Shown here: positions 7,871-48,907 of the stretch, piece by piece
How the letters are laid out: each line of letters starts with the position of its first letter
How positions within the stretch are numbered: position 1 is the first letter of the stretch
Source: Arthrobacter sp. H14
Lineage (GTDB): Bacteria > Actinomycetota > Actinomycetes > Actinomycetales > Micrococcaceae
DNA length: 49,134 nt
Reading direction: 5' to 3'
Assembly: GCF_000520495.1 (NCBI RefSeq)
Contig: NZ_KI914687.1
Span: forward strand, 25,535 to 74,668
Notes under the pieces: model-generated
The model's database searches: none
What the model was told of the DNA's origin: nothing
Seen by the model: the letters and a program-made list of their open reading frames with translations, nothing else
Position numbers and translations under genes: made by a program

Positions 7871-8539
7871 TCAGTGGCCGATATGCTCCAACTTGTCGAG
7901 ATCAGCCTTATCGACAGCAGCACCGTCGGCTGGAGTTCCGTGGCTGCCATGCGGAACAGCAAAGTCACCGGCTGTTGTGGCGGCCAGTCCCGGGACAGTA
8001 ATGGCAGAGACCAGCGTCGCGGCCGCTGCCAGGCCAAGCAAGAGCTTTGCCGCTGGAAGGGATCCGCTGGTGGGCCGGGGGCCAAGCCGCCGCAGATACC
8101 CAACCGCGGCCAGCATGATCAGCTGAAGGGCCAGGGCTCCGGCCACTGTGGCGTCGAATTCACTTGCTTCTGAAGTCGAGATCCAAACTGAGTGGACCAA
8201 AGAACCAAGCAACATCATCGATGTGAGGGAAAGCATCGACACCATTGGTTTCACCCGGACGATGACGCCTCTGCGCATCGTCATAATCGACCATGCGACG
8301 AGGCACAGGGCCCACAACCCGGCCACAACGGCGGCTGGGTAGGTCACTGCACCAAACTCGGATGAGGCGTAAGCCAGATTGGAACTTATGCCGAATGTCA
8401 ACAAAGCGGCACCGAATCCGGCGAATGCGGCCAGCAATCGGGTGGCTTCGCGCAGCACGGTTCCTTCAGAGGCACGGTCAGGTTGCTGCACCGGCGAAAA
8501 CGATGCCGGTGCAGCAACCCCTGCGTAATTGGCCATCAC
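7871..8539 (-). CDS. Uncharacterised membrane protein, multi-helix
   Basis: I do not recognise a named family. The 222-residue product has about 30 polar residues, then four to five hydrophobic helices (around 35-55, 65-85, 98-115, 128-148 and 165-185). A hydrophilic C-terminal tail contains several histidines (PHGSHG ... LEHIGH) and could be extracytoplasmic. The start is GTG at 8539 or ATG one codon further in; the choice does not alter the protein materially. The start lies directly after the stop of the DUF4383 gene, so the two form one operon ending at the terminator at 7824-7858. A membrane-embedded accessory or metal-interacting role is conceivable, but there is no direct evidence. Confidence 0.7.
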   Translation of the reverse strand: MMANYAGVAAPASFSPVQQPDRASEGTVLREATRLLAAFAGFGAALLTFGISSNLAYASSEFGAVTYPAAVVAGLWALCLVAWSIMTMRRGVIVRVKPMVSMLSLTSMMLLGSLVHSVWISTSEASEFDATVAGALALQLIMLAAVGYLRRLGPRPTSGSLPAAKLLLGLAAAATLVSAITVPGLAATTAGDFAVPHGSHGTPADGAAVDKADLDKLEHIGH

Positions 8540-10345: not shown

Positions 10346-10840
10346 CTACGGCGCCGGCCTGGGGCCCTTTTCGAGCAGCGGTTCCATCCGGAAGGGAATC
10401 AGCTCACCCATGGCCAGCGAAGTATCGGTCCGCTCGACCCCGGTACAGCCAAGAATTTTGCCATTTATGCGGAACAGATCCTCTGCGTCCACGGAGACCA
10501 CCCGCACCAGCAGATCTGCCTGGCCCGCAAGGCCGAAGGCTTCAATTACTTCCGGTATTTCCGATAGTTCTTTGGCTAATTGCTGTAATTTTTGCTGCTG
10601 CACATGTACCGAAATGAATGCCATTAGGGGGTAGCCCAGAGCGGCCGGATTGATCCGGCGTTCGAACGACAGGAACACCGACTTTCTTTCCAGCTGCGCC
10701 ATGCGTGCCTGTACAGTGTTTCGGGAGAGTCCGAGCTTTTGGGCCAGCGACACAACGGTGCGGCGCGGGTCTTTGGCGAGGGCGATCAACAGCCGGGTGT
10801 CGGTACCATCAATAGCTTGCATATTGCGCAACGGTAGCAT
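10346..10840 (-). CDS. Lrp/AsnC-family transcriptional regulator
   Basis: About 164 residues from the ATG at 10840 (an ATG at 10822 would also suit). The N-terminal helix-turn-helix reads LAQKLGLSRNTVQARMAQLE, and the C-terminal ligand-sensing RAM/AsnC domain contains IPEVIEAFGLAGQADLLVRV. Lrp-family proteins sense amino acids such as leucine or alanine and form octamers. Its neighbours are alanine dehydrogenase downstream on the same strand and, divergently, the branched-chain 2-oxoacid dehydrogenase genes. It may therefore regulate both amino-acid catabolic units, which is an inference from position. Neither start has a strong ribosome-binding site. Confidence 0.93.
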   Translation of the reverse strand: MLPLRNMQAIDGTDTRLLIALAKDPRRTVVSLAQKLGLSRNTVQARMAQLERKSVFLSFERRINPAALGYPLMAFISVHVQQQKLQQLAKELSEIPEVIEAFGLAGQADLLVRVVSVDAEDLFRINGKILGCTGVERTDTSLAMGELIPFRMEPLLEKGPRPAP

Positions 10841-10906
10841 GACGGTTCGGGGCAAAACTGGGCACAATGTTCAGTTTTTTGTTCCTCTGTTGTACTCAAT
10901 GAGCTG

Positions 10907-37164: not shown

Positions 37165-37512
37165 GTGGTAACGACGAAACGTCAACCACTTCGGACCTGC
37201 ATCGGGTGCCGTAATCGAGCAGCCCAAAGTGAACTTCTGCGGGTGGTGGCCACCAATTGCGACGGCACGAACGCCGTCGTTGTCGATGCCCGCCGCCGCA
37301 TGGCAGGCCGGGGTGCCTGGTTGCATCCCAGCCGGTCCTGCTTGGTAATGGCTGTGAAACGCCGTGCGTTCAACCGTGCTTTTAGAGGCCAGGTTGAAAC
37401 CCGGAATGTGGAGAGTTATTTCAACGCAGCGGAATCCACCGGAACCTCCGGAGGACCCATGACAACCGTCCAACCTGAGAGCGGGTCAGTAATGAAGATG
37501 GAAACCCGATGA
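37165..37512 (+). CDS. YlxR-family (DUF448) RNA-binding protein
   Basis: A protein of about 115 residues with the YlxR signature RTCIGCRNRAAQSELLRVV, then RRRMAGRGAWLHPSRSCLVMAVKRRAFNRAF. Family members sit between nusA and infB and are small nucleic-acid-binding proteins; in Bacillus YlxR influences transcription and in Clostridioides it has been linked to RNase P. I take the GTG at 37165 because GAGAGGTG lies six bases upstream; an ATG at 37147 in the same frame has no such site. A hairpin (CTTCCGG/CCGGAAG at 37077-37105) and a TAGAAT hexamer precede the gene, so an internal promoter is possible. Confidence 0.88.
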   Translation: MVTTKRQPLRTCIGCRNRAAQSELLRVVATNCDGTNAVVVDARRRMAGRGAWLHPSRSCLVMAVKRRAFNRAFRGQVETRNVESYFNAAESTGTSGGPMTTVQPESGSVMKMETR

Positions 37513-40635: not shown

Positions 40636-41094
40636 ATGGCTGATCCAGCACGTGCCGCGAAACTGGCGGACCGGATCAAAGTAGTGGTCGCACAGGCGTT
40701 GGAGCGACGGGTGAAAGACCCGCGGCTGGGCTTCGTCACGGTGACCGACGCCAGAGTAACCAACGATCTGCAACACGCGACGGTGTATTACACCGTCTAC
40801 GGTGATGAGGACGAGTCGGCGGAAACGCGCCGTGCGCTGGAGTCCGCCAAGGGCATTCTGCGCGCCGAGGTAGGCAAGAACATTACCGTGCGGTTGACAC
40901 CGACGCTGGAGTTCGTCCCGGATGAGATCCCGGTTAACGCCAGCAACCTCGAGGAGCTTTTGCGTACCGCCAAGGAGCGGGATGCGGAGGTGGCGTCACT
41001 GGCCGCTGAGCAGAAGTACGCGGGCGAACCGGATCCCTACCGTCGTAAAGACGATGAGGAAGCCGCTGAGGCGGACGGCTCCGACCGGCCGTAA
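40636..41094 (+). CDS. rbfA: Ribosome-binding factor A
   Basis: A 152-residue KH-fold protein that binds the 30S subunit during 16S rRNA maturation and cold adaptation. Family blocks are RIKVVVAQALERRVKDPRLG, VTVTDARVTNDLQHATVYYT and NITVRLTPTLEFVPDEIP. The C-terminal acidic tail is usual in actinobacteria. The ATG at 40636 has AGGAGAAAG upstream. Usually truB follows rbfA directly or after recJ-like genes; here a terminator and a three-gene insert come between. Confidence 0.96.
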   Translation: MADPARAAKLADRIKVVVAQALERRVKDPRLGFVTVTDARVTNDLQHATVYYTVYGDEDESAETRRALESAKGILRAEVGKNITVRLTPTLEFVPDEIPVNASNLEELLRTAKERDAEVASLAAEQKYAGEPDPYRRKDDEEAAEADGSDRP

Positions 41095-41115
41095 CCCCGT
41101 ACCAGATAAAGAGAA

Positions 41116-41170
41116 GGCCCGCCGGGCTGCCCATAGCATAATGACTTCGGGCAGTCCGGCGGGCCTATTT
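41116..41170. terminator. Strong terminator after rbfA
   Basis: GGCCCGCCGGGCTGCCC (41116-41132) pairs with GGGCAGTCCGGCGGGCC (41149-41165) over 17 positions with one G-T wobble; TATTT follows on the plus strand. On the minus strand it is followed by TTCTCTTTAT, so it also serves the convergent TetR gene. It ends the rimP-rbfA transcript. Confidence 0.9.
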
Positions 41171-41184
41171 CATGCCTGGGAACG

Positions 41185-41898
41185 CTAACCGGGCCGGGAC
41201 GCTGGGGGTGGAAGCGCCCCGCCACGGTCTGAAATGGACGCAGCCAGGCCATCAAGGATGAGGTCGAGCCCGAACTCGAACTCGTTACCGAAGTCGTAAC
41301 CCGGTTGGAGGACGTGCTCGGAAGCCATCTCTCTCAGATGGGGGTAGTCGCCGGCGGAGAATAATTGCACAATGGGTTCGGTGACTTCAGCGACGGTTCC
41401 CGGGCCTTTGAATGGCAGCGCCGCTTCCTGAAGGGCGAAACCGTAGATATAGCTGTCGAGCAGGGCGTAGGCGTGGGCTGTCATCTGTACGGAAAACCCC
41501 GCCGCCCGCAGAGTGCCCAGCGTCGCGTCATGGTGCTGCAGCGTGGCAGGTCCGGGAGTGGTCCGGGACTCGAGCAGGCCGATGGCCCAGGAATGACAGC
41601 GTAGAACCCGCCGCGCAGACTGTGCCCGGCGGTGCATCCCGGGCCGCCAATCGCCCCCGGCAGAAGGCAAATCGATTTCGCTGAAGACGAGATCCACAAT
41701 GCCGTCAAGGATCTCGTCCTTATTGGCAACGTAGTGATAGAGCGACATTGGCTTGGTTTCAAGCGCGCGGGCCAGCGAGCGTATCGTCAGCGCCCCAATT
41801 CCCTCCCGGTCTGCAACTGCCAGGGCACAGCGGAGAACTCTCTCCCGGCTGAGGGGAGTCCGCTCACGGCGGCTGCTGCGGCTGGATTTTTCAGGCAT
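41185..41898 (-). CDS. TetR-family regulator (TetR_C class)
   Basis: A 237-residue regulator. The DNA-binding domain reads [19 protein letters not shown], then [21 protein letters not shown], a pattern found in the classical TetR subgroup with the TetR_C_1 C-terminal domain ([16 protein letters not shown] region). It is divergent from a medium-chain dehydrogenase gene. Two copies of a perfect palindrome lie in the 106-bp spacer, so it almost surely represses both directions. The ATG at 41898 has GGGAGCA upstream. The ligand is probably a small organic molecule handled by the dehydrogenase. Confidence 0.92.
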
Positions 41899-41925
41899 AT
41901 TGCTCCCGGAGGACTCTATCGCTTT

Positions 41926-41962
41926 CGTACAGTGTACGTTACCATATTTCGTACAGTGTACG
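41926..41962. promoter_or_regulatory. Twin palindromic TetR operators
   Basis: CGTACAGTGTACG occurs twice, at 41926-41938 and 41950-41962, exactly 24 bp apart, so on the same face of the helix to within about a quarter turn. Both are perfect palindromes around a central G; the second extends to TTCGTACAGTGTACGAA. An AT-rich TACCATATTT separates them and could hold a -10 in either direction. They lie between the TetR gene and the dehydrogenase gene. Confidence 0.8.
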
Positions 41963-42004
41963 AATGCGTACTGCTGGACAGCATTTGGTCAGGAAGAACA
42001 ACCC

Positions 42005-43042
42005 ATGACATCTCAACAAGAACGTGCCCCAAAGAGAAATGCCGCAAACGGCACGACGACGGCAGCCGACACGATGCGGGCGATCGTGCAGGACTCTTAC
42101 GGGTCGGCCGACGTCCTCCGCCTGGCGCAGATACCCCCTCCCCGAATAGCCGACAATGAGGTGCTGGTGCGGGTTCACGCCGCAGGACTGGACCGGGGAA
42201 CGTGGCATCTGATGACGGGCAAACCGTATCTGCTGCGCCTGGGTTTTGGATTCCGCAGGCCCAAGGACCGGGTTCCCGGAACAGACGTCGCAGGAACGGT
42301 TTCCGCGGTCGGGCCGGCAGTGACCGGATTCGCCCCAGGCGACGAAGTGTTTGGTTTCGGGAAAGGGGCCTTTGCCGAATACGCCGTGGTGCGCGAGGAC
42401 AAGCTTGCCCGCAAGCCGGCCAACCTTTCTTTCGAACAGGCGGCAGTGGTGCCGGTATCAGCGTCCACCGCGCTGCAGGGCCTCTGCGACGTCGGCCGCG
42501 TTCAGCGGGGGCAGAAAGTACTCATCATCGGTGCATCCGGCGGTGTCGGCAGCTTTGCAGTACAGCTGGCTAAAGCCCTTGGGTCCGACGTCACCGGCGT
42601 ATGCAGCACGGCAAAACTCGACTTCGTGCGATCCCTCGGCGCTGACCATGTCATCGACTACACCGGTACCGACTTCGCAGACGGCGCCCACCATTACGAC
42701 TTGATCCTCGACATTGCAGGAAATCCGGGTCTCTCACGCCTCCGCAAAGCCCTCACAGCCAATGGAACGGCGGTCATCACCGGCGGCGAAGACGGCGGCA
42801 ACTTCTCAGGGGGAATGAACCGCCAGTTCCGGGCCCTTGCTCTATCAGTCTTGATACGCCAGCGGTTAACCATGTTTGTCGGCAAAGTGCGTTCCAGCGA
42901 CCTCCAAAGACTTACTGGATTCATCGAGGCGGGAACGGTGACGCCGGGAATCGACAAGACGTATCCGCTGGACCGGATGCCGGAGGCCATGCGCTACTTC
43001 GACGCCGGGCAGGTACGTGGAAAGGTCGCCATCACTATCTAA
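42005..43042 (+). CDS. Medium-chain dehydrogenase/reductase, quinone-oxidoreductase-like
   Basis: A 345-residue MDR-family NAD(P)H oxidoreductase. The GroES-like N-terminal domain includes VLVRVHAAGLDRGTWHLMTG and VPGTDVAGTVSAVG. The Rossmann domain has the nucleotide motif IGASGGVGSFAVQLAKALG and GADHVIDYTGTDF. The catalytic zinc ligands of classical alcohol dehydrogenases are absent (no GHE motif), pointing to the zinc-free quinone-reductase/enone-reductase branch. The ATG at 42005 has AGGAAG upstream; a longer upstream frame crosses the operators and is rejected. It is controlled by the divergent TetR. The substrate is unknown; an electrophile or aromatic detoxification role is plausible. 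Confidence 0.9.
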   Translation: MTSQQERAPKRNAANGTTTAADTMRAIVQDSYGSADVLRLAQIPPPRIADNEVLVRVHAAGLDRGTWHLMTGKPYLLRLGFGFRRPKDRVPGTDVAGTVSAVGPAVTGFAPGDEVFGFGKGAFAEYAVVREDKLARKPANLSFEQAAVVPVSASTALQGLCDVGRVQRGQKVLIIGASGGVGSFAVQLAKALGSDVTGVCSTAKLDFVRSLGADHVIDYTGTDFADGAHHYDLILDIAGNPGLSRLRKALTANGTAVITGGEDGGNFSGGMNRQFRALALSVLIRQRLTMFVGKVRSSDLQRLTGFIEAGTVTPGIDKTYPLDRMPEAMRYFDAGQVRGKVAITI

Positions 43043-43108
43043 ATACGAGCAGCCCTCCGATCCGCCGTCCACCCGGCCAACAGTTTTATCGTGTGAAAGA
43101 AGAAAGTC

Positions 43109-44050
43109 ATGTCAATGTCAACGCCGAACGAATCCCCGCGGCAGTCCCGGCCGCCAGCCGGCAAAATGAGCCCCGTACACATGCTCATACTCATCGTGGG
43201 AGTGCTGCTGTCTGTCGCCTCTCCGGCCGTGCTCGCCAATTCGGGACCGGTACTGCTGGGCCTGACCCTGCTTGCGGGCGGGCTGGCCCTCATTATCATT
43301 GGAGCCGCCGGCCTTGGCCGGGGCATCCAGGCACAGTCTCCCATGACGCCGGATGATGAGACCGACGCCTCTGCCTACCCAACCCGGTTGGTCGGGCAAT
43401 TGGACCCCGCGCTGTCGAGATGGATGTGGTTGCTCAAGTGGCTCTTGGCCATCCCGCATTACATAGTGCTCTCCATCCTCTGGATTGCGTTCCTGGTTGT
43501 GACCGTGGCCGCCGGCCTGGTGATTCTGTTTACCGGCCGTTATCCAGCCTCGCTCTTCCAATTCACGGTCGGCGTCCTTCGTTGGAACTGGCGGGTCTCG
43601 TTCTACGCCTATGGAGTGCTTGGCACAGACCACTATCCGCCTTTCACCTTGGCGCGTACGGACTATCCAGCGGAATTCGACGTGGCCTATCCTGCCAAGC
43701 TTTCGCACTGGAAAGTGCTGGTGAAGTCCTGGCTCCTCGCCTTGCCGCAACTGCTTATCGTCGCTGCTCTTACCGGAGGAGTGTGGGCTTCGACAGACGG
43801 TTCGAACACCGGGTCGGCCAATGGCATCTCGCTGCTCAGCCTCCTGGTCCTGATCACCGCCCTCATCCTGCTGTTCACCGGGGTCTACCGGCTTGGACTG
43901 TTCAACCTGCTGATGGGTATTAACCGGTGGATATACCGCACCATTACCTACACGGCCTTAATGCGCGACGACTACCCGCCGTTCAGGCTTGACCAAGGGC
44001 CGCTCGAACCACCCGCAGAACGGAGAGATGTGGGAAATGTACCGCTGTAA
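43109..44050 (+). CDS. DUF4389 membrane protein (two copies of the domain)
   Basis: A 313-residue membrane protein with about six helices: two near the N-terminus, then two DUF4389 units. Each unit starts with a helix containing (L)LKWLLAIPHYIVLS or LVKSWLLALPQLLIV and ends with RWNWRVSFYAYGVLGTDHYPPF or RWIYRTITYTALMRDDYPPF. The paired DDYPPF-like ends reveal the internal duplication. DUF4389 proteins are of unknown function. The ATG at 43109 has GAAAGAAGAAAG upstream. Only 66 bp separate it from the dehydrogenase gene on the same strand, so it is probably in the TetR-controlled unit. Confidence 0.85.
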   Translation: MSMSTPNESPRQSRPPAGKMSPVHMLILIVGVLLSVASPAVLANSGPVLLGLTLLAGGLALIIIGAAGLGRGIQAQSPMTPDDETDASAYPTRLVGQLDPALSRWMWLLKWLLAIPHYIVLSILWIAFLVVTVAAGLVILFTGRYPASLFQFTVGVLRWNWRVSFYAYGVLGTDHYPPFTLARTDYPAEFDVAYPAKLSHWKVLVKSWLLALPQLLIVAALTGGVWASTDGSNTGSANGISLLSLLVLITALILLFTGVYRLGLFNLLMGINRWIYRTITYTALMRDDYPPFRLDQGPLEPPAERRDVGNVPL

Positions 44051-44071
44051 CGGGCGGCCTCCGCAGCACCC

Positions 44072-44077
44072 TATACT
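44072..44077 (+). promoter_or_regulatory. -10 element for a probably leaderless truB
   Basis: TATACT lies six bases before the truB GTG, so transcription would start at or next to the start codon. No ribosome-binding site is present between them. A matching -35 is not evident. A fresh promoter is needed here because the operon is split upstream. Confidence 0.5.
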
Positions 44078-44083
44078 GGGTGG

Positions 44084-45019
44084 GTGACTTCTGGGCTGAC
44101 CGGATCGGGATTGGTGATCGTAGACAAGCCGGAGGGGTGGACCAGCCATGATGTGGTCGCCCGGATGCGGCGCTTGGCCGGTACGCGCAAGGTGGGCCAT
44201 GCCGGGACACTGGATCCGATGGCCACCGGCGTACTCGTCGTCGGAATCAACAAGGCCACCAGGCTGCTGACGTACATCGTCGGCGTCTCCAAGACCTACA
44301 CGGCCACCATCCGATTGGGCCAGAGCACCATCACCGACGATGCCGAAGGCGATGTCACTTCCGAAACCAGCGCGGCCGGCGTGGGCGAAGCTGCGGTGCG
44401 TGCCGCCGTCGAACGCTTAACTGGAGACATTGAGCAGGTGCCCAGCAGCGTCAGCGCCATCAAGGTTAATGGCAAGCGTTCCTACGCCAAGGTCCGGTCG
44501 GGCGAAGAGGTGAAACTCGCCGCGCGGCCGGTCACCGTATCGGAATTCTCAGTTAATGGACTCCGCCGCGTTCCGGCTGGCGAAGAGTTGGCCGGCGGCG
44601 ACGAGGGTGAGTACCTGGACGTGGACGTGACCGTCGAGTGCTCCTCCGGAACCTATATCAGGGCCTTGGCCAGGGATCTCGGCGGCATTCTGGGGGTCGG
44701 CGGGCATCTGACTGCCTTGCGCAGGACGCGGGTCGGTCCGTATCGGCTCGATCAGGCCCGTACGCTGGAGCAGCTGGCCGAAGAACTCACCGTCCTGGAC
44801 ATTTCCACCGCCGCGCGGGCACTGCTTCCCGTTCGGGAACTTACTACGGACGAGGCGGTGGAGTTGTCGTTTGGCCGAAGGATTGCCGCAGGAGCCGGGA
44901 CGGAAACGGTGGCGGCCTTCGCTCCGGACGGATCCTTGGCCGCGCTGCTGGAAAACAAGGATGACGCCGCCAAGCCGGTGCTGGTTTTTGCGCCGGCCAC
45001 GGGAGGACACCAGGAGTAA
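44084..45019 (+). CDS. truB: tRNA pseudouridine55 synthase
   Basis: A 311-residue enzyme forming pseudouridine at position 55 of the tRNA T-loop. The catalytic aspartate is D44 in HAGTLDPMATGVLVV. Other blocks are VDKPEGWTSHDVVARM at the N-terminus, PSSVSAIKVNGKRSYAKVR and CSSGTYIRALARDLG. The start is GTG at 44084. The gene normally belongs to the infB-rbfA string; here it is separated from rbfA by about 3 kb. Its stop overlaps the ATG of a small membrane-protein gene (TAATG), so truB leads a new operon. Confidence 0.96.
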   Translation: MTSGLTGSGLVIVDKPEGWTSHDVVARMRRLAGTRKVGHAGTLDPMATGVLVVGINKATRLLTYIVGVSKTYTATIRLGQSTITDDAEGDVTSETSAAGVGEAAVRAAVERLTGDIEQVPSSVSAIKVNGKRSYAKVRSGEEVKLAARPVTVSEFSVNGLRRVPAGEELAGGDEGEYLDVDVTVECSSGTYIRALARDLGGILGVGGHLTALRRTRVGPYRLDQARTLEQLAEELTVLDISTAARALLPVRELTTDEAVELSFGRRIAAGAGTETVAAFAPDGSLAALLENKDDAAKPVLVFAPATGGHQE

Positions 45020-45417: not shown

Positions 45418-45846
45418 ATGGCCACCACGGAGGAAGAAACATTGAAATCATCCCGGTCCAGCGGACCCGGGCGGCTGATCATCGCCGTCTATGCGGTATT
45501 TGCGCTCGCCGCCACCGCACGTGCAGGTTTCCAGATCGCAACAAAGTTCTCTGAAGCGCCGGTGGCCTACAGCCTCTCCGCCTTCGCCGCCGTCGTCTAC
45601 ATCCTGGCTGCAGTATCGCTGGCCAAAGCGGGCCCCCGCTGGTTCTGGACATCGGTGCTGGCCGTCAGCGTCGAAATGGTCGGTGTACTCACGGTCGGCG
45701 CGGTCACTCTGGCGAGCTCTGCGGCCCTGCCCGACGATACGGTCTGGTCAGCCTTCGGCCGGGGATATGGATTCGTTCCGCTGGTATTGCCGATCGTCGG
45801 CTTGTGGTGGCTCTATTACAATCGTTCGGACAGGGAACGCCGATGA
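45418..45846 (+). CDS. Small membrane protein, unknown
   Basis: A 142-residue protein with about 17 polar residues, then four hydrophobic helices and a basic tail (WLYYNRSDRERR). The pattern ARAGFQIATKF ... PVAYSLSAFAAVVYI ... VGRGYGF-like (GRGYGFVPLVLPIVGLWWL) is reminiscent of uncharacterised actinobacterial integral proteins. It starts three bases after the previous gene, and its stop overlaps the acetyltransferase start by four bases. It may form a complex with the preceding small membrane protein. No catalytic residues stand out. Confidence 0.8.
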   Translation: MATTEEETLKSSRSSGPGRLIIAVYAVFALAATARAGFQIATKFSEAPVAYSLSAFAAVVYILAAVSLAKAGPRWFWTSVLAVSVEMVGVLTVGAVTLASSAALPDDTVWSAFGRGYGFVPLVLPIVGLWWLYYNRSDRERR

Positions 45847-46979
45847 AGAGCGACGGTGTGGTCAGACTGCGGAGGCTGCGGGTTGCGGATGCGGAAGCGT
45901 TCGCCGCGCTGTCCAGCGACCCCGAAGCCGTCCAGTGGTCCAATGGCAGTCCGGATTATTCGGCCGCGGACGCGGCGCTGTTCATAGCCGGCGATGCAGA
46001 AAAAGGCTGGGAGAGCGGAAAGACGCTGCGCTGGGCGGTTGCCGATGACGACAGTGATGCACTCCTCGGGACGGTCGCGCTGCACCGGGTGCACGCCGGG
46101 GGAGCGGAACTGGGTATCAAGCTCGCATCCGGCTCCCGGGGCACCGGGGTTGCCCTGCGCGCCGTCGAACTGGTGCTGGATTATGCCTTCAATGAGCGGG
46201 ATCTGTCCGTGGTGCACTGGTACGCCAAAGTGGGGAATTGGGCCAGCCGGAAGCTGGCACACCGGGCAGGGTTTTCGCTGCAGGGAACCGTGCGGTTGCT
46301 GGCGGACGACGGCGATGGCCGCGCCGACTGCTGGATCCTGACCATGACCACATTCGATCACCGGCGGATCAGCGGACCCAGCGGAGAGCCGCAGACGGGC
46401 AACCTGGAGGTGACCGCCGTCGTACCGGAGCTGTCCGACGGCACAGTGGTGCTGCGCCGGCTCGGGGAGCGGGACGTGGCGGCACTTACCGAAAACTGCC
46501 AGGATCCTGCGGCGGTGAAGTGGACGAGTGTTCCGGAGGGTTACACCGAACAGGACGCCCGGGATTACATTTTCACCCATGTGCCTGGGGCCTGGGAGAG
46601 CGGAGAACAGCAGAACTTCGCCATTGCCCGCGCGGAGGACGGCCAATTGCTGGGCACCATTGGCCTTCACCGCTTCCGGCCCGGAACCGCCGAGGTAGGG
46701 ATCAATATGGGGCCGGAATCGCGGGGCAGCGGCGCCGCGGAATGGGCGGCCCGCCTGCTGATCGGGTACGCGCTCGATCAGCTGAATCTGCAGTACCTGC
46801 ACTGGCAGGCAGGTGTTCCCAACTGGGCAAGCCGGAAACTGGCGTGGAAGCTCGGCTTCCGGCACGAGGCGACGATCCGTGGTTACTTCGTCCAGCGGGG
46901 TGTTCCCACCGACGCCTGGATCATGACGCTGGCGGCCGACGATCCCCGAAGTCCCTGCGAACCGTGGATGGGGCCGTAA
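45843..46979 (+). CDS. Tandem GNAT acetyltransferase (two domains)
   Basis: A 378-residue protein made of two RimJ/RimL-type GNAT domains in a row. The repeat is plain: VVRLRRLRVADAEAFAAL and VVLRRLGERDVAALTEN open each half, and NWASRKLA occurs at about residue 132 and again at about 327, a 195-residue offset. Each half also has the acetyl-CoA loop area (GIKLASGSRGTGVALRAVE; GINMGPESRGSGAAEWAAR). A likely role is acetylation of protein N-termini or small amines. One half may be regulatory. The ATG at 45843 overlaps the previous stop. It ends the truB-led operon. Confidence 0.88.
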   Translation: MKSDGVVRLRRLRVADAEAFAALSSDPEAVQWSNGSPDYSAADAALFIAGDAEKGWESGKTLRWAVADDDSDALLGTVALHRVHAGGAELGIKLASGSRGTGVALRAVELVLDYAFNERDLSVVHWYAKVGNWASRKLAHRAGFSLQGTVRLLADDGDGRADCWILTMTTFDHRRISGPSGEPQTGNLEVTAVVPELSDGTVVLRRLGERDVAALTENCQDPAAVKWTSVPEGYTEQDARDYIFTHVPGAWESGEQQNFAIARAEDGQLLGTIGLHRFRPGTAEVGINMGPESRGSGAAEWAARLLIGYALDQLNLQYLHWQAGVPNWASRKLAWKLGFRHEATIRGYFVQRGVPTDAWIMTLAADDPRSPCEPWMGP

Positions 46980-47051
46980 CCGCTTTCCACCCTGCACCGG
47001 CCGTGAGAGTATGGCTTCACCCAGTACTGTCCTTGAGGTGAGGTGTTGAAC

Positions 47052-47825
47052 ATGTCCCAGCCCGGTCCGGACTCCTCCAACGGTCCAGCCAAGGAACAGG
47101 CGGGAAAGCCGGCTGGAGACGAGGGCAGGAACGCTTCTGGTGCTCAGGGCCGCAACCCAGCAGGAGCCCAAGGCAAAGACCCCGCGCCTGGAACGGCGCC
47201 GACCACCAAAATCGGGTCCGGCCCATCCAATACAAGTTCCGTGTCGCCCCGGCCGGCCGACAGTGCTGCGACCAAACCGATACGCACGGATACCGCGACC
47301 GGTGGAAAGCGCGACGCTCCCGATAAGCGGGACGCCCGTGGCAAAACCGGAGCCGATGGGAAGGCAGCCGAAAGCGGCGATGAGAACCGCGGCGATTGGA
47401 AACTGTTCCGGGCCGCCGTCGCGCTGGTGGGACTGCTGCTGTTGGGATTCGGCGTTTTCCAGGTCCTGTTGGGGACAGCGGGGCTGCCCGGGCCGGCGTC
47501 GGAAACCACACCTACTTTGGAAAGCAACTACCGGTACTTCGCCGCGCTGCTCGTGGGTGTCGGAGCAGCATTCCTGACCATCGCGGTGAAATTCGAATGG
47601 GCGAATGTTCTCTGGTTTGTCTGCACCATGGTTTTTATAGGCGGTATCGCCCGGGTGATTTCCTGGGCCCTTTCCGGAACTCCCCACGTCATCATGATCG
47701 TGCTGATGGTCCTCGAACTTGTGGTCCCGCCCGTGCTGGTGGTCTGGCACCGCTGGTTGGTCAAAACGGCGGAGCTCAAGCGCACTTATTCCCACCAGCA
47801 GGGAACCGCGCAGGGCCCGCGTTAA
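47052..47825 (+). CDS. DUF4345-like membrane protein with long disordered N-terminus
   Basis: A 257-residue protein. The first 115 or so residues are polar, rich in Gly, Ala, Lys, Asp and Thr, with no hydrophobic stretch. The remainder has four transmembrane helices with the layout of DUF4345: FGVFQVLLGTAGLPG, then NYRYFAALLVGVGAAFLTIA, then VFIGGIARVISW. The ATG at 47052 is preceded by GAGGTGAGG; a GTG at 47043 sits within that ribosome-binding site and is less likely. The function of the family is unknown. The gene stands alone between the acetyltransferase and ribF. Confidence 0.78.
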   Translation: MSQPGPDSSNGPAKEQAGKPAGDEGRNASGAQGRNPAGAQGKDPAPGTAPTTKIGSGPSNTSSVSPRPADSAATKPIRTDTATGGKRDAPDKRDARGKTGADGKAAESGDENRGDWKLFRAAVALVGLLLLGFGVFQVLLGTAGLPGPASETTPTLESNYRYFAALLVGVGAAFLTIAVKFEWANVLWFVCTMVFIGGIARVISWALSGTPHVIMIVLMVLELVVPPVLVVWHRWLVKTAELKRTYSHQQGTAQGPR

Positions 47826-47846
47826 ATTATCAACGGCACTATCAGC

Positions 47847-47852
47847 CATAAT
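47847..47852 (+). promoter_or_regulatory. Possible -10 of the ribF promoter
   Basis: CATAAT lies 50 bases before the ribF GTG in the 77-bp gap after the DUF4345 gene. No convincing -35 is seen. The gap is too short for an FMN riboswitch and shows none of its motifs. Confidence 0.3.
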
Positions 47853-47902
47853 GTTAAGGACCCGTTCCGGGGCACAACACTGCAGCGCTCGCGAGGAGAT
47901 AC

Positions 47903-48907
47903 GTGCACTACTGGAAAGACCTGGCCGAGGTTCCCGGCGGCTTCGGTCCATCGGTGGTCACCATTGGAAACTTCGACGGCGTGCACCGGGGACACCAGCA
48001 GGTTCTCTCGCAACTGATCACCGCGGCGCAGGAGGACGGATGTGCCGCTGTGGCAGTTACCTTCGAGCCGCATCCGGCCAAGGTGCACAGGCCCGAAAGC
48101 GCGCCGGAGCAGATCATGGGCCTCGAGGACAGGCTGGAAACGCTCGAAGCAACCGGGCTGGATGGCGTTCTGGTGATGCATTACACCCTGGAGTTGGCCG
48201 CAAACACGCCCGAGGAGTTCGTTCGGAAGGTCTTTGTCGATACGCTCGGCGCTTCCAAGGTGTTCGTCGGCCACGATGTCCGCTTCGGCAAAGGCAACAG
48301 TGGGGACCTGGAAACCATGAAGCAGCTGGGGGAGCAGTACGGTTTCAGCGTGGCCGTCATCAACGAATTCGGGTCGGACGTTCCCGGTCCGCACATCGAT
48401 TCCGCCGTAGCGAACGGCAGCAACGCGGTCGACCGCCGGTGTTCATCCACCTGGGTCCGTGAGCTGTTGAACGACGGCGATGTGCAGACCGCGGAGCAGG
48501 TCCTGGGCCGGCCGCACCGGGTCCGCGGCGAAGTGGTCCATGGAGCGGCACGCGGCCGCGCGCTGGGTTTTCCCACCGCGAACCTTGCCCCTGCGGCAAC
48601 CGGGTTCATCCCGGCGGATGGAATTTACGCCGGCTGGATGACGGACGCCGCAGGACGCCGGTGGCCGGCCGCCATTTCCGTGGGCTCGAACCCGACCTTC
48701 GAGGGCGTCTCCCGCCAGGTCGAGGCACACGTCATCGACCGCCCGGAAGAGGCACCGGACGACTTCGATTTATACGGCCAGATGGTAGTCGTCGAATTTG
48801 TTGATCGGCTTCGCGGGATGGTGGCCTACAAGGGGCCGGAGGCGCTGGTCCATCAGATGCGGCTGGACGTGCAGCAGACCCGCGATGTGCTGAAAGCCGC
48901 CGGCTAA
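47903..48907 (+). CDS. ribF: Bifunctional riboflavin kinase/FAD synthetase
   Basis: A 334-residue cytoplasmic enzyme making FMN from riboflavin and then FAD. The N-terminal adenylyltransferase domain has VVTIGNFDGVHRGHQQVL (about residue 18) and the later substrate loop STWVRELLNDGD. The C-terminal riboflavin kinase domain begins near residue 190 with GRALGFPTANLAP and contains GIYAGWM and PTFEG...VEAHVID. The GTG at 47903 has GCGAGGAGA upstream. ribF commonly follows truB in actinobacteria; four extra genes intervene here. Its stop overlaps the stop of the convergent response-regulator gene by two bases. Confidence 0.96.
   Translation: MHYWKDLAEVPGGFGPSVVTIGNFDGVHRGHQQVLSQLITAAQEDGCAAVAVTFEPHPAKVHRPESAPEQIMGLEDRLETLEATGLDGVLVMHYTLELAANTPEEFVRKVFVDTLGASKVFVGHDVRFGKGNSGDLETMKQLGEQYGFSVAVINEFGSDVPGPHIDSAVANGSNAVDRRCSSTWVRELLNDGDVQTAEQVLGRPHRVRGEVVHGAARGRALGFPTANLAPAATGFIPADGIYAGWMTDAAGRRWPAAISVGSNPTFEGVSRQVEAHVIDRPEEAPDDFDLYGQMVVVEFVDRLRGMVAYKGPEALVHQMRLDVQQTRDVLKAAG

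What the first reader, a model, noticed from the sequence alone, without database searches (positions are those of the whole stretch)
41116..44077. TetR/dehydrogenase/DUF4389 module splits the rbfA-truB linkage
A strong terminator after rbfA, a self-contained regulated module and a new -10 at truB show that the conserved operon has been cut and re-promoted. Such a clean junction suggests past insertion of an accessory cassette into a core locus.
Basis: partly seen in the sequence, partly recalled or inferred. Interest (0 to 1): 0.5.

Follow-up and report, generated by a model that had tools for sequence, protein, structure and literature searches.

The report
Gene cassette between rbfA and truB
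In this actinobacterium a small, self-regulated three-gene set sits between two translation genes that are often direct neighbours, at a spot where many relatives carry other, differing genes.

Summary
Observation confirmed: rbfA, a strong hairpin, convergent tetR, divergent MDR oxidoreductase plus DUF4389 membrane gene, then truB with its own -10 (rbfA-truB 2989 bp). None of the three genes lies upstream of truB in 119 family relatives (115 read from rbfA to truB, 4 only upstream of truB) or 6 order members; the single congener is unresolved at a scaffold gap. Lineage-specific arrival here is supported. Foreign origin is only suggested: the MDR groups with other orders (support 0.57-0.84); codon usage is deviant but not extreme (ranks 6, 7, 9 of 43). 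The 'cut and re-promoted' junction was probably not made by this cassette: 82 of 119 relatives have over 600 bp there, with other cargo; 80 of 83 promoter-bearing genomes have a hairpin after rbfA; other junctions stay short (infB-rbfA 0/120, truB-hypA 0/100 over 600 bp). It is a recurrent insertion seam without visible mobility genes; this occupant is a tetR-mdr-DUF4389 regulon with paired operators, found at other loci in at least 11 relatives. Known kind; mechanism of the module inferred.

The parts
40636..41094 (+). rbfA, left core flank
   Evidence: PF02033 8.3e-31
41112..41172 (.). Long GC-rich hairpin between convergent rbfA and tetR; probable shared two-way terminator
   Evidence: -53.7 / -51.5 kcal/mol, z -7.55 / -6.51; 18-nt arms; hairpin within 150 nt after rbfA in 80 of 83 promoter-bearing genomes, window included
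41185..41898 (-). TetR-family regulator, TetR_C_1 type
   Evidence: PF02909 2e-23, PF00440 1.2e-5; best solved chains 5ojx, 2y2z (SimReg2), 2opt (ActR)
41899..42004 (.). 106-bp divergent regulatory region with two palindromes CGTACAGTGTACG, 24 bp apart (starting near 41926 and 41950)
   Evidence: motif core in 45 of 49 distinct tetR-mdr intergenics against 0.29 in mononucleotide shuffles; exact GTACANTGTAC only at these two places in the genome, 0 for the pattern read backwards
42005..43042 (+). MDR-superfamily, quinone-oxidoreductase-like enzyme
   Evidence: PF13602 1.9e-24, PF08240 1.4e-15, PF00107 8e-15; solved relatives include quinone and enone oxidoreductases
43109..44050 (+). DUF4389 membrane protein, 66 bp after mdr, probably the same transcript
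   Evidence: PF14333 3.5e-16, two stretches; hydrophobic segments; mdr-DUF4389 order at other loci
44072..44077 (+). TATACT, -10 of a leaderless-type truB promoter
   Evidence: TATACT before the truB GTG in 86 of 125 relatives, always 7 nt (window 6 nt)
44084..45019 (+). truB, right core flank
   Evidence: TIGR00431 1.4e-66, 224 bits, above cut-off

Best explanation
The rbfA|truB seam of this actinobacterial family was uncoupled in an ancestor: rbfA ends at a strong terminator and truB starts from its own leaderless promoter. Genes landing between them harm neither, so the seam became a recurrent place of gene gain, loss and replacement without a visible integrase. In this lineage the occupant is a portable TetR-regulated cassette, perhaps from another actinobacterial order, placed by recombination in the flanking core genes. 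Inferred working: a TetR dimer sits on the two operators and shuts both tetR and mdr-DUF4389; a small lipophilic or electrophilic inducer releases it; the MDR enzyme reduces the compound and the membrane protein assists at the membrane. Shown by sequence: gene order, operators and their conservation, absence from relatives at this site, other cargo in relatives. Suggested: donor outside the family. Inferred: terminator and promoter activity, mode of entry, inducer, substrate, role of DUF4389.
For: 0 of 125 relatives' truB-upstream stretches hold any of the three genes (59 family, 60 of genus g9, 6 order; tblastn 1e-4). rbfA-truB over 600 bp in 23/59 family and 59/60 further g9 genomes, with varied cargo; junctions over 600 bp: nusA-ylxR 1/77, ylxR-infB 0/80, infB-rbfA 0/120, truB-hypA 0/100, rbfA-truB 87/122 (window and order members included). 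Hairpin after rbfA 80/83 in promoter-bearing genomes, 9/32 in coupled ones, 21/244 coding controls. MDR sister to a Pseudonocardiales MAG sequence (support 0.84) in groups of 4 and 5 with Kribbella, Propionibacteriaceae and Nocardioides sequences (0.83, 0.57). tetR-mdr-DUF4389 at other loci in 11 family genomes. Operator core in 45/49 intergenics against 0.29 in shuffles; 30 of 39 spacings 22-24 bp.
Against: The only congener (G001) looks coupled: rbfA stop, 11 nt, a truB-like GTG start, then a 10-N gap. The node that puts uncoupling below the window has support 0.25. Codon deviation is moderate: ranks 6, 7, 9 of 43, below the core gene ylxR and several unverified ORFs; an earlier ranking of 1, 2, 3 of 32 came from a list that left ten ORFs and ylxR out and is withdrawn. 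GC of the cassette (0.605-0.630) is ordinary. No edge repeat over 7 bp between the flanks. Wider nodes of the MDR tree are weak (0.10), and no relative above about 76% protein identity was seen. The truB spacer here is 6 nt, not the 7 nt of all 86 relatives.
Confidence: 0.72

Rival explanations
1. This cassette itself cut a still coupled rbfA-truB operon, and truB's promoter arose at or after that event.
For: The congener G001 seems to have truB 11 nt after rbfA without TATACT; the window's spacer of 6 nt differs from the 7 nt of 86 relatives.
Against: TATACT before truB in 20 of 23 long-gap, 4 of 4 unresolved and 3 of 32 short-gap family genomes and 59 of 60 g9 genomes, with other cargo or almost none; parsimony gives the uncoupled state at the 38-taxon node whether G001 is scored coupled, uncoupled or left out, at support 0.25.
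Confidence: 0.2
2. The cassette is native to the family and moved here from elsewhere in the chromosome.
For: Many family genomes carry tetR-mdr(-DUF4389) elsewhere; codon deviation is only moderate.
Against: The MDR groups with other orders, at support 0.57-0.84; the congener has no TetR match at E<=1e-30.
Confidence: 0.27
3. The module is ancestral at this locus and was lost in relatives.
For: None found.
Against: 0 of 125 relatives; an orthologous aminotransferase sits beside truB in G015/G044 and in the large clade (about 58-65% identity to G015, against 32-35% for paralogues).
Confidence: 0.03
4. Assembly artefact, or a mobile element such as a transposon or integron.
For: The genome is a 158-contig draft.
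Against: The locus lies well inside a 121-kb contig; none of the three genes is an integrase or transposase; no edge repeat over 7 bp.
Confidence: 0.03

Closest known systems
Horizontal-transfer hotspots without mobile elements (Oliveira et al. 2017, PMC5635113; abstract and passages seen)
   Same: Variable accessory genes between two fixed core genes, with turnover; [quoted passage not shown]
   Different: Here the flanks belong to one usually compact translation operon, with a hairpin on one side and a leaderless-type promoter on the other; and the comparison is across genera, not within a species.
TetR-type repressor with divergent target (Ahn et al. 2012, PMC3511530, abstract and passages seen; simR-simX in PMC5812520, passages seen)
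   Same: TetR_C_1 regulator, divergent target under 200 bp away (106 bp), two palindromes between the genes.
   Different: The target is an oxidoreductase plus DUF4389, not an efflux pump as for TetR and SimR; inducer unknown.
Quinone-oxidoreductase-like MDR enzymes
   Same: PF08240, PF00107 and PF13602; solved relatives include plant and human quinone/enone oxidoreductases.
   Different: Below the NCBIfam cut-off of the PIG3 subfamily (182.5 against 296.8 bits); substrate unknown.

Membership tests
TetR-family repressor with divergent target | N-terminal TetR helix-turn-helix and C-terminal ligand domain | tested here: met
   PF00440 25.4 bits (cut-off 24, marginal) and PF02909 83.3 bits (cut-off 21)
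TetR-family repressor with divergent target | Divergent neighbour closer than 200 bp | tested here: met
   106 bp
TetR-family repressor with divergent target | Palindromic operators in the shared region | tested here: met
   two exact CGTACAGTGTACG; core in 45 of 49 intergenics; motif was defined on the same sequences
TetR-family repressor with divergent target | DNA binding and ligand release | not testable with these tools
   needs gel shift or reporter
Tetracycline repressor TetR proper | NCBIfam NF010319 equivalog score | tested here: not met
   62.7 bits against cut-off 265
MDR superfamily oxidoreductase | ADH_N and ADH_zinc_N / ADH_zinc_N_2 domains | tested here: met
   all above cut-off
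PIG3 quinone oxidoreductase subfamily | TIGR02824 score | tested here: not met
   182.5 bits against 296.8
Horizontal-transfer hotspot without mobility genes | Same core flanks with changing accessory content | tested here: met
   across genera and within g9; not within one species
Horizontal-transfer hotspot without mobility genes | Raised recombination in flanking core genes | not tested
   needs many strains of one species
Integrative mobile element | Integrase or transposase, terminal or target repeats | tested here: not met
   none of the three genes; longest edge repeat 7 bp
Leaderless promoter of actinobacteria | TANNNT a few nt upstream of the start codon | tested here: met
   TATACT, 6 nt, GTG; start site itself not mapped; the motif rule is recalled, literature only seen as a search listing

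The most novel reading that the evidence does not exclude
The seam is a kept docking place: a terminator on rbfA and a leaderless promoter on truB make a transcriptionally neutral slot inside a translation operon, maintained through many genera and refilled by recombination between the conserved flanks, so that unrelated cargo (deaminase, thioredoxin, aminotransferase, propeller protein, transporter-regulator pairs, and here a TetR-MDR-DUF4389 regulon) can be exchanged at no cost to ribosome maturation.
Probability: 0.3. Interest if true: 0.55.

Novelty: new member of a known kind. Interest (0 to 1): 0.4.

Why it matters
It shows where a compact, conserved translation operon becomes open to accessory genes: probably first uncoupling by terminator and promoter, then repeated occupation. 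The seam can be read in any genome of this family, so the order of events and the rate of turnover are directly testable. The TetR-MDR-DUF4389 regulon with its paired operators is a defined unit around a domain with almost no literature (the one paper found, seen as a listing only, names it once).

Tried and rejected
The promoter/terminator scan listed neither key element. GC profile showed nothing. Codon usage was run three times: 39 mechanical ORFs; mdr with a wrong start ranked 5, DUF4389 9, tetR not in the list; 32 genes; ranks 1, 2, 3, but ten ORFs and ylxR had been left out by me; 43 genes, those put back; ranks 6, 7, 9. AlphaFold of DUF4389 from 4 sequences gave mean pLDDT 50.3 and was not used; no fold search was made. 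Edge repeats: longest 7 bp. In the tree four genomes (G022, G018, G050, G023) were dropped for too many gaps, and 12 of the 60 further g9 genomes were used. The aminotransferase paralogues were not monophyletic, so that tree is used only for identities. Of 38 order genomes with handles only 6 were read at the junction. Operators were counted against mononucleotide shuffles, with a motif defined after on the same sequences. The four cargo family names rest on one or a few representatives each; the propeller match is near cut-off. Paper searches for the rbfA-truB order found nothing relevant (one listing; none); they cover open-access PMC only. One search gave no relevant paper.

Full report
What is there. 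The right part of the window holds rimP-nusA-ylxR-infB-rbfA, then tetR(-), MDR oxidoreductase(+), DUF4389(+), then truB and further genes to ribF (rimP, nusA, ylxR, infB and ribF named by recall and by their conserved order, not scanned). rbfA and truB are 2989 bp apart. Between the convergent rbfA and tetR lies a hairpin with 18-nt arms whose 90-nt stretch folds at -53.7 kcal/mol on one strand and -51.5 on the other (z -7.55 and -6.51), so it could end transcription from both sides. truB has TATACT 6 nt before its GTG, the pattern of a leaderless promoter, and this is the only TATACT on either strand of the window. Between tetR and mdr there are two identical palindromes CGTACAGTGTACG, 24 bp apart.

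Is the module particular to this genome? The window is G000:C115:25535-74668 of a 4.27-Mb draft in 158 contigs. I read the DNA upstream of truB in 59 family genomes (G002-G060), 60 further genomes of genus g9 and 6 of the 38 order genomes (fetched). None of these 125 stretches holds tetR, mdr or DUF4389 at tblastn 1e-4. In four family genomes (G022, G018, G050, G023) rbfA was not within about 8 kb of truB, so the junction was not read across there. The only congener held, G001, has rbfA followed after 11 nt by a GTG that looks like a truB start, then 10 N, then other genes; the rest of its truB opens another contig. It probably has no cassette there and may be coupled, but the junction is not assembled.

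What relatives have instead. rbfA-truB exceeds 600 bp in 23 of 59 family genomes (32 short, 4 unresolved) and in 59 of the 60 further g9 genomes (the last has 558 bp), and in 3 of 6 order genomes. Contents differ: PLP aminotransferase, NHL-type propeller protein, nucleoside deaminase, thioredoxin, MFS transporter, TetR regulator, acyl-CoA dehydrogenase, FmdA, arylsulfotransferase, HNH protein (representatives named by Pfam; clusters). In the 60 further g9 genomes the aminotransferase is found in 59, the propeller in 39, the deaminase in 36, the thioredoxin in 26 and all four in 15 (mechanical ORF calls, so lower bounds). Genus g9 is probably Arthrobacter-like: the named Arthrobacter sp. M2012083 locus matches a g9 locus at 84% DNA identity. 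Other junctions do not vary so: over 600 bp in nusA-ylxR 1/77, ylxR-infB 0/80, infB-rbfA 0/120, truB-hypA 0/100, against rbfA-truB 87/122 (only loci holding both genes).

Terminator and promoter belong mostly to the seam, not to the cassette. TATACT before truB's GTG is present in 20 of 23 long-gap, 4 of 4 unresolved and 3 of 32 short-gap family genomes, in 59 of 60 g9 genomes and in 0 of 6 order genomes; the spacer is 7 nt in all 86, but 6 nt in the window. A strong hairpin follows rbfA in 80 of 83 promoter-bearing genomes (window included), 9 of 32 coupled ones and 21 of 244 coding control stretches. Three relatives (G037, G030, G053) have the promoter with only 85-205 bp between the genes, as an uncoupled empty site would look. 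The aminotransferase beside truB is orthologous between G015/G044 and the large clade (G015: about 58-65% against 32-35% for paralogues), and G000 and G001 show only paralogue-level matches (37 and 39%). Parsimony puts the uncoupled state below the window however G001 is scored, but the node has support 0.25. I conclude that uncoupling is probably older than the cassette; the congener speaks against it.

The cassette as a unit. TetR relatives at E<=1e-30 occur in 110 of 395 family genomes, the window's own included. Of the 29 other best TetR loci, 28 have a divergent MDR gene and one is cut by a contig end. Eleven family genomes show tetR-mdr-DUF4389 in one fetched stretch (in three of them TetR is only 45-47% identical), with no rbfA or truB within the roughly 1.5 kb of flank read; a Geodermatophilaceae MAG shows the same order (L167). 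In 49 distinct tetR-mdr intergenics (window included) the core KTAC-N3-GTAM occurs in 45, at least twice in 39, against 0.29 and 0.0 in shuffles; 30 of 39 spacings are 22-24 bp. In the window's genome exact GTACANTGTAC is found only at these two sites; one or two copies could be chance, the pairing in the right place is the point. This fits a dimeric repressor controlling itself and the enzyme; Ahn et al. 2012 (abstract and passages) report that TetR regulators under 200 bp from a divergent neighbour mostly repress it.

Origin. The MDR is sister to a Pseudonocardiales MAG sequence (74% identity, support 0.84) inside groups of 4 and 5 with Propionibacteriaceae, Kribbella and Nocardioides sequences (0.83, 0.57; wider nodes weak). 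Codon usage of tetR, mdr and duf4389 ranks 6, 7 and 9 of 43 window genes: above average, not outstanding, with the core gene ylxR first. My earlier ranking of 1, 2, 3 of 32 was an effect of the genes left out.

How it most likely works. Shown by sequence: architecture, conserved operators, restriction to this lineage at this site, turnover at the seam. Inferred: repression and release by a small lipophilic or electrophilic compound, reduction by the MDR enzyme, membrane role of DUF4389, entry by recombination in flanking core genes. The last follows Oliveira et al. 2017 (abstract and passages), who state that half of hotspots lacked evidence of mobile elements. The attempted DUF4389 model was too poor to use.

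Verdict. It is a new member of a known kind, of moderate interest.

Noticed in passing
L245-L304 (further g9 genomes), L036, L037: Resident cargo between rbfA and truB in one genus: aminotransferase in 59 of 60, propeller protein in 39, deaminase in 36, thioredoxin in 26, all four in 15; the propeller protein has only near-cut-off Pfam matches.
   Followed up: partly
L095, L096, L099 (order members G064, G082, G072): An MFS transporter with a TetR-type regulator sits between rbfA and truB in genomes of other families, without TATACT at truB.
   Followed up: partly
L034:11815-11860: A 10-N scaffold gap just after rbfA in the congener G001, then an HNH-like stretch and tlyA-nadK-recN-pyrG; looks like a scaffold misjoin, with truB cut at the start of another contig (L035).
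   Followed up: partly
window 45846-47903: The hypB-ribF interval also differs among relatives (double GNAT and hypC present or not); possibly a second variable site.
   Followed up: no
L149-L159: A second class of DUF4389 matches lies in open frames of about 500-660 codons, with no tetR or mdr in the fetched flanks.
   Followed up: no
window 7871-8539, 10346-10867 and 37180-37512: Two unnamed minus-strand ORFs and ylxR deviate more in codon usage than the cassette does.
   Followed up: no
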